Shown here piece after piece: positions 37,058 to 40,809 of a stretch of 64,000 nucleotides of DNA. How positions within the stretch are numbered: the first letter of the stretch is position 1; every line of letters begins with the position of its first letter. The position numbers and the translations under genes are program-made. Below the pieces are notes generated by a model that had not been told where the DNA came from, made no database searches, and was given only the letters and a program-made list of their open reading frames with translations. Source of the stretch: Ignavibacteriota bacterium (GTDB taxonomy: Bacteria > Bacteroidota > Ignavibacteria > Kapaibacteriales > UBA2268); the NCBI GenBank assembly GCA_020437395.1, contig JAGQWJ010000008.1:1-64000 (forward strand), in the 5' to 3' direction.

Positions 37058-37714
37058 ATGAATTTAATTTTTTTAGGTCCTCCTGGTGCTGGCAAAGGCA
37101 CTCAAGCAAAGAGAATTTGCGATAAATACAACTTAACACAAATAGCTACTGGTGATATACTACGTGAGCATTTGAAAAATGAAACTGGGTTGGGGAAAAA
37201 AGCCAAGGAATATATCAACGCTGGCAATCTTGTCCCTAATGATCTTATAATAGATATGATGCGTTACGAAATAGAGAAAAATCGATCGAAAGGTGGATAT
37301 TTATTAGATGGATTCCCAAGAACAGTAAAGCAAGCAGAAGCATTAGACGAGTTGCTCAAAGATATAAATGACAAAATTGATGTTGCCATTGTGCTAAACG
37401 TTCCTAACGATGAGTTGATAGCTCGATTGACAGGGAGAAGAGTATGTCCTAATTGTGGAACTTCATATCACTTATTGTTTAACCCACCCGCTAATGAAGG
37501 CATTTGTGATCATGATGGTGAAGAATTAATTCAAAGAAAAGATGATAACGAAGAAACTGTAAAAAATAGATTAGAAGTTTACACAAAAGAAACAAAGCCA
37601 ATAATTACATATTATGAGAAACAGGGACTTGCTCACCACGTTGATGGTGTGGGCTCTGTTGACGAAATATTCAATCTGATAAACGAAGGAATTGATTCGT
37701 TCGTAAACGATTAA
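37058..37714 (+). CDS. adk: Adenylate kinase
   Basis: P-loop GPPGAGKGT, NMP-binding region, LID with RLTGRRVCPNCG and a second Cys/Asp pair (ICDHDGEE), so a zinc-type lid. At 218 residues it is the long form. It interconverts ATP, ADP and AMP in the cytoplasm. The next gene begins 1 bp after the stop, an unusual neighbour (transposase-like). Confidence 0.96.
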   Translation: MNLIFLGPPGAGKGTQAKRICDKYNLTQIATGDILREHLKNETGLGKKAKEYINAGNLVPNDLIIDMMRYEIEKNRSKGGYLLDGFPRTVKQAEALDELLKDINDKIDVAIVLNVPNDELIARLTGRRVCPNCGTSYHLLFNPPANEGICDHDGEELIQRKDDNEETVKNRLEVYTKETKPIITYYEKQGLAHHVDGVGSVDEIFNLINEGIDSFVND

Positions 37715-37715
37715 A

Positions 37716-38870
37716 ATGATTATCAATTCACACATAAATTGTATATACTGCCAATCAGAAGCAGTGATAAAGCATGGTAAAACACGCTCGGGAGATCCTC
37801 GTTTCCGTTGTAAGGATTGCGAAAAAACTTGGGTGAAGGGCATAGTTATTTACAAAAAGCCTGATATAAGTGCTATTGCAGAATCATATTTGCTTGGGTA
37901 TTCAATACGAGATTTGGTGCCATTTTACAAAAGTTCTCCTCATCGGATTAATATTAAGATTCGTGAATTTTTAGGTGAGACACAAAGTTGGGAATCTTTC
38001 TTAGATAAGAACTCAGATGTTCGCAAGGCTGATGTGGTCTATTTGCAAGGGATTAGATTTAATTGCTCCTACAAATCACCTGAGAACAATGAGATGTTCG
38101 TAGCGTTTGCAATTGAAGGGCTATCATCACAAATTATTGGATTCGAAATTGCTGAAGACAATACAGAAGATGTATGGACTAAGCTTATTGCACGATTAAG
38201 CAAACGTAATTATGAAGTAAAAACGTTTCTTACGAGGGATATTAAAACAGTCGAAAATTCCGTCACAAAATATTTTAGTGATTCCAGAGTAAAACTTTAC
38301 TTGCACAAATTGAATAGAGATAAGGAAGTGGCTAATAGGTGCTGCGTATTGGAGAACGTCAAACTCAGAGATAAGCTAATAGACGATGCCTTAAAATTTT
38401 ACTCTAAATTAGACAATCAAAGCTATACTTCATATCTGAAAAATAGATTCGATATGGATATCAAAACATGCATAAAAAAGGATTGCGATAGATTCTTCGA
38501 ATGTATGATGAAGAACTGTGGAACCGAGTCCGAATCGAGATTAGAACAGTTATTAGTAGAATTCCACAATCGTTTCGAGAAATTCCATGCACTCAAAACC
38601 GACCCTTATATCATTATCAATGCGTGGATAGGTCTTCACATGCTAAGACCGATGGAATGTGGTTTTACCAGATATTCCCTCTATAATCAATTGCCTTGCA
38701 AATGCTCATTCGCTTGCTTTGCGAGCAACCACAATGATGAGCAATGCGAGTTTATTCCAAACCAAAGAGAACTTAGTGATTTCGCGAATGAAGTAACTAT
38801 TCGAGCTCTCCACTTACCAATTGAATCAACAGTAAAAGGCAAATTCAAGCTGGAACTCACAAGTTTTTAA
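37716..38870 (+). CDS. Transposase-derived protein with degenerate catalytic core
   Basis: The N-terminus is an IS1/InsA-like zinc ribbon (C9-x2-C12, C32-x2-C35 in FRCKDCEKTW), then an HTH (AIAESYLLGYSIRDLVPFYKSS), then an RNase-H-like core of IS256/MULE type. Where such transposases have 'lalDGi' this has YLQGIRF (Q111). The second motif (visDg) reads FLTRDI, with R174 at the expected place. No terminal inverted repeats flank the gene, and its start is 1 bp after adk. It may be a domesticated DNA-binding protein or an inactive remnant. The catalytic comparison is by eye. Confidence 0.7.
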   Translation: MIINSHINCIYCQSEAVIKHGKTRSGDPRFRCKDCEKTWVKGIVIYKKPDISAIAESYLLGYSIRDLVPFYKSSPHRINIKIREFLGETQSWESFLDKNSDVRKADVVYLQGIRFNCSYKSPENNEMFVAFAIEGLSSQIIGFEIAEDNTEDVWTKLIARLSKRNYEVKTFLTRDIKTVENSVTKYFSDSRVKLYLHKLNRDKEVANRCCVLENVKLRDKLIDDALKFYSKLDNQSYTSYLKNRFDMDIKTCIKKDCDRFFECMMKNCGTESESRLEQLLVEFHNRFEKFHALKTDPYIIINAWIGLHMLRPMECGFTRYSLYNQLPCKCSFACFASNHNDEQCEFIPNQRELSDFANEVTIRALHLPIESTVKGKFKLELTSF

Positions 38871-38931
38871 GTTAGTGGATTCGATATATTTTTTGAATTT
38901 GTTCAATTAATAATATTTGTTAATTTACTGA

Positions 38932-40386
38932 ATGATTGATATAAAAGAAAAAGATAAAAAATTGATAGGTTATTCCTTCATTGATTTGTTTGCAGGTATA
39001 GGTGGTTTTCATTATGCATTAACTTCCTTTGGAGCAAATTGTGTTTTTGCTAGTGAAATTGATGAGAAAGCCGCACACATATACAATGTAAATCACAAAA
39101 CGGAACCATTTGGTGATATAACTAAGATTAGTGAAACTGATATTCCTAATCACGATATACTCTGTGCTGGCTTCCCTTGCCAAGCATTTTCCATATCTGG
39201 TAAACAAAAGGGATTTGAAGATACTCGAGGTACATTATTCTTCGATATTGCTCGAATAGTAGATCACCACAAACCCAAAGTTCTTTTTCTTGAGAATGTA
39301 AAGAATTTCATAAAACATGATGGTGGAAATACACTTAAAACGGTAGTGAATGTAATTGTGAAAATGGGCTACAATGTATATTATGAAGTACTCAACACCA
39401 GTAATTTTGGATTACCTCAGAATAGAGAACGTGTTTATATCGTTGCTTTTAGGAATGATTTAAACAGTTCTTTATTTAGTTTTCCTAGTTTTATAATAAA
39501 ATCTAAATTAACAGAGATCCTTGAAAATAATCCTGAAGATGGGAAAGTAATATCGAGAGAAGATATTTCGATTGATAAAGATTATATACCCCAAACAAAT
39601 ATGTTTGGAAAATCAGAAATCCCAAACAAACCAATTCAAATAGGCAAAGTGAATAAGGGTGGTCAAGGTGAAAGAATCTATCATCCTTTAGGTCATGCTA
39701 TCACCTTATCCGCATACGGAGGTGGGGCTGGGTCTAAAACTGGATTGTATAAAATAGAAGATGTAATTAGAAAACTTTCACCCCGTGAATGTGCTAGGTT
39801 ACAAGGATTCCCTGAATCTTTTATTTACCCATCAAGTATTTCAGAAGCTCACAAACAGTTTGGTAATAGCGTCTCAATCAACGTATTACAGTATATAACG
39901 CAAGAAATTATAAATGTATTAGAATATAATGAAAAAGAAAATACTACTCGGTTCGCAAACGGCAAAACAGGGATTCAGAAACGAAAAGAAATAGTATCAA
40001 AATTTGAGAATTGGAAAAATAATCTTGAGGCAAGAGCATGGCTTTTGATAATGGAATATGAACTTACTGAAATCAAATCAGTTAAAGCTGTTGTGATTTC
40101 TGGGTTTAAAACTGATGTACAAGTACAAATAACTATTCATCTAGCAGAAGCAATCAACGTAGAAAACCTTCAAGTTAAGTTAGTAAGTAACCTCAAAGGA
40201 TTCAACCAGATTGACAAAAGATGGACGGATAAATATGTCGAGATGTGGGATATACCTAACAACATAACAAAACTAATAAAGCAATATACCGGAGAGTTGT
40301 TACCATCTATCGATGAGCCAAGAGACAGTCGGAGAATGTTTATTGATGAACTTAGCAAAGTAAGTCAGAATAAACTGGTAAATTAG
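38932..40386 (+). CDS. C5-cytosine DNA methyltransferase fused to N-terminal part of a restriction endonuclease
   Basis: Residues about 10-330 are a 5mC methyltransferase: motif I FIDLFAGIGGFHYAL, motif IV GFPCQAF (C83), motif VI ENV (121-123), motif VIII QNRERVYIVAF, motif IX/X RKLSPRECARLQGFPESF and QFGNSVSINV. Residues about 335-484 are not methyltransferase; KAVVISGFKTDVQVQITIHL and RWTDKYVEMW...RDSRRMFIDELS resemble a type II endonuclease domain. The frame stops at TAG 40384-40386 but continues open to 40674. The methyltransferase part is complete and probably active; recognition site unknown. Confidence 0.88.
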   Translation: MIDIKEKDKKLIGYSFIDLFAGIGGFHYALTSFGANCVFASEIDEKAAHIYNVNHKTEPFGDITKISETDIPNHDILCAGFPCQAFSISGKQKGFEDTRGTLFFDIARIVDHHKPKVLFLENVKNFIKHDGGNTLKTVVNVIVKMGYNVYYEVLNTSNFGLPQNRERVYIVAFRNDLNSSLFSFPSFIIKSKLTEILENNPEDGKVISREDISIDKDYIPQTNMFGKSEIPNKPIQIGKVNKGGQGERIYHPLGHAITLSAYGGGAGSKTGLYKIEDVIRKLSPRECARLQGFPESFIYPSSISEAHKQFGNSVSINVLQYITQEIINVLEYNEKENTTRFANGKTGIQKRKEIVSKFENWKNNLEARAWLLIMEYELTEIKSVKAVVISGFKTDVQVQITIHLAEAINVENLQVKLVSNLKGFNQIDKRWTDKYVEMWDIPNNITKLIKQYTGELLPSIDEPRDSRRMFIDELSKVSQNKLVN

Positions 40387-40674
40387 TTAGTAGAGAATCA
40401 AACGTTAATTGTTAGTGATATTCTCAAAGGTCGAGGTAAATTTTCAGCGGAGTGGATGCTAGTAGCCCAAAAAGTTGAAAATTCAGCAAGGTGGGTTCTC
40501 AAACCAATGAATTTTTGTGTTAACTATTTTGGTAACGGAAAAGTAGAGATCACAAAACAAGGAAACATAAAGATTGGAAGGATTACAATGCAACGAAAAG
40601 GTGGAGATGGGGGAAGAAAAACGGCACAAATGTTACAGTTTAAATTAAATCCAGCAGAACTTTTTGAAGTTTAA
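40387..40674 (+). pseudogene. C-terminal restriction-endonuclease part, cut off by in-frame TAG
   Basis: In the same frame as the methyltransferase, 95 codons follow the TAG: LVENQTLIVSDILKGRGKFS, then AEWMLVAQKVENSARWVLKP, then IGRITMQRKGGDGGRKTAQM and LQFKLNPAELF. These look like the conserved end of the same nuclease. An internal ATG at 40456 could start a 72-residue piece, but without the upstream part it would lack a full domain. The simplest reading is a nonsense mutation that inactivates the nuclease. Readthrough or sequencing error are alternatives. Confidence 0.75.
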
Positions 40675-40727: not shown

Positions 40728-40736
40728 CTCTTTATG

Positions 40737-40809
40737 AGCCGCCTATCGGATTCGAACCAATGACCTGCTGATTACAAATCAGCTGCTCTACCAACTGAGC
40801 TAAGGCGGC
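40737..40809 (-). tRNA. tRNA-Thr (anticodon UGU)
   Basis: On the minus strand, GCCGCCT pairs with AGGCGGC (acceptor). The D-loop has AGCTCAGTTGGTAGAGCA, the anticodon stem-loop is GCTGA-TTTGTAA-TCAGC (anticodon TGT), and the T-arm contains GGTTCGAATCC. It is 73 nt, and CCA is not encoded. Confidence 0.95.

What the first reader, a model, noticed from the sequence alone, without database searches (positions are those of the whole stretch)
37716..38870. Transposase-derived gene immediately after adk, with expected catalytic residues replaced
The protein keeps a zinc ribbon, HTH and RNase-H-like core, but Q111 and R174 stand where IS256/MULE-type enzymes have catalytic Asp. It starts 1 bp after adk, has no flanking inverted repeats, and its frame is intact over 384 codons. 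This points to exaptation as a DNA-binding protein, possibly tied to the neighbouring modification gene.
Basis: partly seen in the sequence, partly recalled or inferred. Interest (0 to 1): 0.6.

Follow-up and report, generated by a model that had tools for sequence, protein, structure and literature searches.

The report
Domesticated dead transposase conserved in Ignavibacteriota
A gene that began as a jumping-gene enzyme lost its cutting residues in the ancestor of one bacterial family and has since been inherited as an ordinary single-copy gene under selection as strong as on a housekeeping gene, most likely as a DNA-binding regulator.

Summary
ORF 37716-38867 (stop to 38870, 384 aa, +) starts 1 bp after the adk stop. 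It has a zinc ribbon, an HTH and an RNase-H core most like ISCth4/IS256 transposase (Foldseek E=1.7e-8). Q111 and R174 occupy the two catalytic Asp positions.

The loss is not peculiar to this genome. In 32 members from 31 genomes, position 111 is never acidic (0/32) and position 174 is N, K or R (0/32); the third acid, E277, is D/E in 32/32.

The family occurs in 31 of 54 genomes of the window's taxonomic family and in none of the 69 other genomes searched in the order. It is single copy apart from one duplicate and one split gene. Every multiply sampled genus is monophyletic in the gene tree, clades match an alaS tree, and within-genus dN/dS is mostly 0.02-0.06, the same as adk. There are no terminal repeats.

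This is a domesticated, catalytically dead transposase: shown by sequence, untested at the bench. DNA binding and regulation are inferred: zinc ribbon and HTH are the most conserved parts, and the gene's own leader carries a nearly unique footprint (TAATCT-N2-3-TGTTGC).

adk linkage belongs to one clade only. The link to the modification gene is not supported: that gene sits there in this genome only.

The parts
37058..37714 (+). adk (adenylate kinase), upstream partner; stop 1 bp before the gene's ATG, so probably co-transcribed and translationally coupled
   Evidence: same order in G001-G003
37716..38870 (+). domesticated transposase gene, 384 aa plus stop
37740..37820 (+). four-Cys zinc ribbon, residues 9-35 (C9, C12, C32, C35 invariant)
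37866..37976 (+). helix-turn-helix, residues 51-87; recognition-helix region SSP.RIN..IR nearly invariant; with the ribbon the most conserved part of the protein
38025..38579 (+). RNase-H-like core with helical insertion, residues 104-288
38046..38048 (+). codon of Q111, position of catalytic Asp 1 (Q/I/V/A/S in the family; acidic 0/32)
38235..38237 (+). codon of R174, position of catalytic Asp 2 (N, K or R in the family; acidic 0/32)
38544..38546 (+). codon of E277, probable position of the third catalytic acid (D/E 32/32)
   Evidence: motif matched by eye to TNALEG of the intact IS1249-like proteins
38607..38867 (+). C-terminal helical region, residues 298-384, unassigned, well conserved at INGWIA; the last 12 residues have low model confidence

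Best explanation
The gene is a domesticated, catalytically dead transposase of IS256/IS1249 ancestry. It was immobilised once, at or before the base of one Ignavibacteriota family, then inherited vertically and lost in several lineages. The protein most likely acts as a sequence-specific DNA-binding protein: zinc ribbon and HTH read the DNA, and the dead RNase-H and C-terminal domains serve dimerisation or as scaffold. The most likely role is transcription factor, autoregulating through a TAATCT-N2-3-TGTTGC element in its leader where it has its own promoter, and expressed from the adk operon in the adk-linked clade. Shown from sequence: ancestry, loss of both catalytic Asp, single copy, vertical descent, purifying selection. 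Inferred: DNA binding, dimerisation, regulation, targets.
For: Fold and profile match to ISCth4 transposase with both Asp positions lost in 32/32. 31 of 54 family genomes, none in the rest of the order, no full-length match outside the family among 395 genomes drawn from the phylum, none in viral contigs; in plasmids only a zinc-ribbon match to an IS1 protein. Genera monophyletic and deep clades (g1+g4+g17; g19+g25) shared with alaS, Mantel r=0.45, 0/2000 permutations. Parsimony on an alaS tree needs 8 changes, compatible with one gain and about seven losses. dN/dS 0.017-0.064 in close pairs against 0.015-0.068 for adk. Mean between-genus identity: ribbon 55%, HTH 56%, first part of core 40%. 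Leader word TGTTGCAAA in 4 of 13 groups against 0.1 expected. The element lies just upstream of the gene in all 7 genomes of g20, g5 and g22 searched, and only 11 other copies occur in those genomes, several inside ORFs. Five g9 leaders share a matching island in otherwise unconserved DNA.
Against: No binding, expression or phenotype data. The leader element was found in the same sequences it was scored on and could be the core promoter instead of an operator. Genomic neighbours vary between genera, giving no functional clue. About 43% of family genomes lack the gene, so it is not essential there. The root of the alaS tree inside the family is unresolved, so gain and loss counts are approximate.
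Confidence: 0.62

Rival explanations
1. Domesticated DNA-binding protein with a non-transcriptional role: nucleoid structure, chromosome segregation, replication or DNA repair, using retained end-binding and synapsis without catalysis.
For: The same anatomy and selection evidence fits. The core and C-terminal half remain well conserved (INGWIA, RFEKFH), more than an inert scaffold would need.
Against: The leader footprint suggests specific autoregulation. Loss in many genomes argues against a central chromosome role.
Confidence: 0.2
2. Trans-acting silencer of related insertion sequences: it binds the ends or promoters of IS256/IS1249-type elements without cutting, as truncated transposases can.
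For: Shares zinc ribbon and HTH with IS1249-like elements.
Against: Above-cut-off IS256_Zn_var transposases occur in 1 of 54 family genomes, a genome that lacks this gene. The own genome has no other IS1249-type match. Selection has held for the whole depth of the family.
Confidence: 0.08
3. A nuclease or transposase with a rearranged, still active metal site.
For: E277, D97 and the R201/D202/E204 cluster are strongly conserved acidic or charged positions.
Against: Strand 1 has no conserved acid: position 111 is 0/32, position 112 2/32. Position 174 is 0/32 and 175 4/32, in one genus only. The ISCth4 CxxH motif keeps the His in most members but not the Cys. ISCth4 D175A abolishes activity (PMC7780238).
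Confidence: 0.05
4. A recently inserted, decaying IS copy with no function.
For: Downstream flank differs between strains of the genus.
Against: dN/dS 0.02-0.06, open frames in all but one member, single copy, same position in all four genus members, no terminal repeats.
Confidence: 0.01

Closest known systems
ISCth4 / IS256-family (Mutator-type) transposases
   Same: Best structural match (Foldseek E=1.7e-8) and best profile match; RNase-H core with helical insertion; HTH before the core
   Different: Both catalytic Asp lost, Cys of CxxH lost, single copy, no terminal repeats, vertical inheritance
IS1249 / IS256 variant-zinc transposases (NF033544, NF048019; intact copies in L057, L058, L060)
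   Same: Same order of four-Cys zinc ribbon, HTH and RNase-H core; hhalign probability 97%
   Different: Those keep the FDGT, TVDG and TNALEG acids and are about 320 aa; this family scores far below either cut-off
FHY3/FAR1 plant transcription factors
   Same: MULE-transposase-derived, catalytically inactive, turned into transcription factors (PMC13306707)
   Different: Eukaryotic, different zinc finger (from my own knowledge), independent domestication; function known there, inferred here
TldR, RNA-guided transcription factors derived from TnpB
   Same: A transposon-derived protein that regulates genes in bacteria (PMC13418256; origin from nuclease-dead TnpB is from my own knowledge)
   Different: RNA-guided RuvC-type protein, unrelated to DDE transposases
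Mobile-element transcription factors co-opted by bacteria (Ner/SfsB and others)
   Same: Mobile DNA-binding protein taken over by the host (review PMC8987985)
   Different: Those come from phage repressors or antitoxins; the review text mentions neither DDE nor IS256

Membership tests
IS256-family / Mutator transposase (active IS) | DDE triad in an RNase-H fold | tested here: not met
   First and second Asp positions acidic in 0/32 members, mapped through ISCth4
IS256-family / Mutator transposase (active IS) | RNase-H core with helical insertion | tested here: met
   AlphaFold model and Foldseek to 6xgx/6xg8
IS256-family / Mutator transposase (active IS) | Curated family score | tested here: not met
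   NF033543 22.8 bits against cut-off 150; NF033544 30.5 against 300; PF00872 13.9 against 21
IS256-family / Mutator transposase (active IS) | Terminal inverted repeats bracketing the gene | tested here: not met
   No such pair in 37600-39000
IS256-family / Mutator transposase (active IS) | Multiple or mobile copies | tested here: not met
   Single copy in the own genome and in nearly all carriers
Domesticated transposase gene | Purifying selection on the protein | tested here: met
   dN/dS 0.017-0.064 in close pairs, like adk
Domesticated transposase gene | Vertical inheritance | tested here: met
   Gene tree and alaS tree largely congruent
Domesticated transposase gene | Host function | not testable with these tools
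   Needs knockout or expression data
Bacterial transcription factor | Sequence-specific DNA binding at promoters | tested here: inconclusive
   Conserved zinc ribbon and HTH, leader footprint; no binding data

The most novel reading that the evidence does not exclude
A previously undescribed bacterial family of transcription factors made from an entire DDE transposase that lost both catalytic aspartates, a prokaryotic counterpart of plant FHY3/FAR1, with a conserved operator and a regulon in Ignavibacteriota.
Probability: 0.5. Interest if true: 0.72.

Novelty: new variant of a known kind. Interest (0 to 1): 0.58.

Why it matters
Well-documented domesticated DDE transposases are mostly eukaryotic. 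My literature searches, limited to open-access papers, turned up no bacterial case in which a nearly whole DDE transposase became a vertically inherited, catalytically dead gene. This family offers an ancestral loss of catalysis, a species tree, a clean selection signal and a candidate operator, so the step from transposase to regulator can be tested directly. It also shows that annotation as transposase would hide a conserved host gene.

Tried and rejected
Tie to the modification gene: rejected, it is at the locus only in the window genome. adk linkage as a general rule: rejected, it holds in one clade of three genera (g1, g4, g17). Alternative acidic triad: no acid conserved at strand 1 or after strand 4. 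IS silencing: no intact related IS in carriers. Eukaryotic zinc-finger hits in the PDB with the full profile: judged chance matches of the ribbon and gone without it. Broad database hits outside the family: only ribbon and HTH regions. Pattern scan in genome contigs reached the genus only. Viral contigs: none; plasmids: one IS1 ribbon match. PADLOC: no match; PHROGs: only transposase zinc-ribbon and partial core matches. Search for adk-locus remnants in gene-less relatives: G030's adk contig ends there and G436 gave no hit.

Full report
Observation. The ORF at 37716-38870 (+, 384 codons and a stop) begins with ATG one base after the TAA of adk. It is the only copy in the own genome. Its N-terminus passes the cut-offs of Pfam Zn_ribbon_InsA and of NCBIfam IS1_IS1595_Zn and IS256_N_4Cys. 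Full-length transposase families (IS1249, IS256, Transposase_mut) match weakly and below their cut-offs. AlphaFold on the family alignment gave mean pLDDT 84 and pTM 0.81: zinc ribbon, three-helix HTH, RNase-H-like core with a helical insertion, and a C-terminal helical part. Foldseek puts ISCth4 transposase chains first, E=1.7e-8.

Catalytic residues. A profile of the family without the ribbon finds ISCth4 (6xg8) in the PDB at E=2.3e-4. The alignment sets its first Asp at window residue 111 and its second at 174. The ISCth4 paper names D175, D241 and E348 as the triad and C262/H265 as a further catalytic motif, and reports that D175A abolished activity (PMC7780238). In 32 homologues position 111 is Q, I, V, A or S and position 174 N, K or R: no acid in any. 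E277 is D or E in all 32; I matched it by eye to the TNALEG motif of intact IS1249-like relatives. The His of CxxH is kept in 29 of 32, the Cys is not. No other acid is conserved on strand 1 or just after strand 4.

Distribution and descent. The gene was found in 31 of 54 genomes of the window's taxonomic family (16 of 27 genera), in none of the 69 other genomes searched in the order, and not at full length outside the family among 395 genomes drawn evenly from the phylum. It is single copy except for two copies in G018 and a frame-split gene in G009. The gene tree makes every multiply sampled genus monophyletic and recovers clades g1+g4+g17 and g19+g25, as does an alaS tree (Mantel r=0.45, 0 of 2000 permutations). 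On an alaS tree of 44 family genomes and four outgroups, presence and absence need eight changes, compatible with one gain and about seven losses. Relatives with public names are Ignavibacteriota MAGs.

Selection. Within genera dN/dS is 0.017-0.064 for close pairs (NG86 and, where it converged, YN00); the two more distant pairs that could be measured give 0.07 and 0.15. adk of the same four genomes gives 0.015-0.068. Many pairs are saturated at synonymous sites, so the values are approximate, but they are far from neutral. Third-position GC of the gene is a little above that of adk, alaS and the upstream TonB-receptor gene (0.36 against 0.27-0.29) and its codon usage correlates with housekeeping genes at r=0.82.

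Context. adk stands directly upstream in all four members of the window genus and in G006 and G019, which form one clade with it; elsewhere neighbours vary. A response regulator with a GcvH-like domain lies directly or closely upstream in several other genera. No bracketing inverted repeats are present. Of the four genus members only the window genome carries the methylase: G001 has a secreted propeller protein, then rplT and infC; G002 has an IS110 and a cyclase gene, then the same rplT and infC; the G003 contig ends after the gene. The proposed tie to modification is therefore not supported.

Mechanism. Zinc ribbon (55%) and HTH (56%) are the most conserved parts between genera, against 40% in the first part of the core, which is what retained DNA recognition with dispensable catalysis would give. 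In the gene's own leader the word TGTTGCAAA occurs in 4 of 13 groups against 0.1 expected. TAATCT-N2-3-TGTTGC lies just upstream of the gene in all seven genomes of g20, g5 and g22 that I searched. The same seven genomes hold only 11 other copies, several of them inside ORFs, and the two gene-less genomes searched hold theirs inside ORFs. Five g9 leaders share a related island (TTTGTA...ATGTTGTTTG.TAATTT) in otherwise unalignable DNA. I read this as a candidate autoregulatory operator overlapping the promoter; it could be promoter alone. It was found and scored on the same sequences.

Rivals. A structural or repair role for a dead DNA-binding transposase cannot be excluded. IS silencing lacks a target in carriers: the only above-cut-off relative among 54 genomes is in one that lacks this gene. 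Hidden catalysis is unlikely.

Known comparators. Plant FHY3/FAR1 are MULE-derived, catalytically inactive transcription factors (PMC13306707). In bacteria, TldR are RNA-guided regulators (PMC13418256, abstract; their TnpB origin is from my own knowledge), and Ner/SfsB-type factors came from phages (PMC8987985). My literature searches found no bacterial counterpart for a DDE transposase, but they cover open-access papers only.

Noticed in passing
window 38932-40674 (+): M.HhaI-like methylase (E=5e-109 to HhaI) fused in one ORF to R.HinP1I-like endonuclease (both enzymes known to read GCGC). An in-frame TAG at 40384-40386 cuts the endonuclease; the rest of it (PF11463 118-208 of 208) continues in the same frame to about 40671. 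A tRNA-Thr gene lies just beyond, at 40736-40809.
   Followed up: partly
L061-L067, L070, L071, L073, L077, L078: Other phylum members carry 139-169 aa open frames with IS1-type zinc ribbon and HTH but no DDE core, strikingly alike across families: perhaps another, shorter domestication.
   Followed up: no
G018 C68 (L046): A second, very divergent member of the family lies beside ATP-sulfurylase and APS-reductase genes; in G028 the single member has the same neighbours.
   Followed up: no
G009 C30 (L045): The gene is split into two frames in this genome, a pseudogene or a MAG error.
   Followed up: no
window 38607-38867, genus g1: The C-terminal part in the window genus is rich in Cys (CKCSFACF...C) while relatives have a conserved CEMKLDKCS tail lacking in the window genus.
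   Followed up: no
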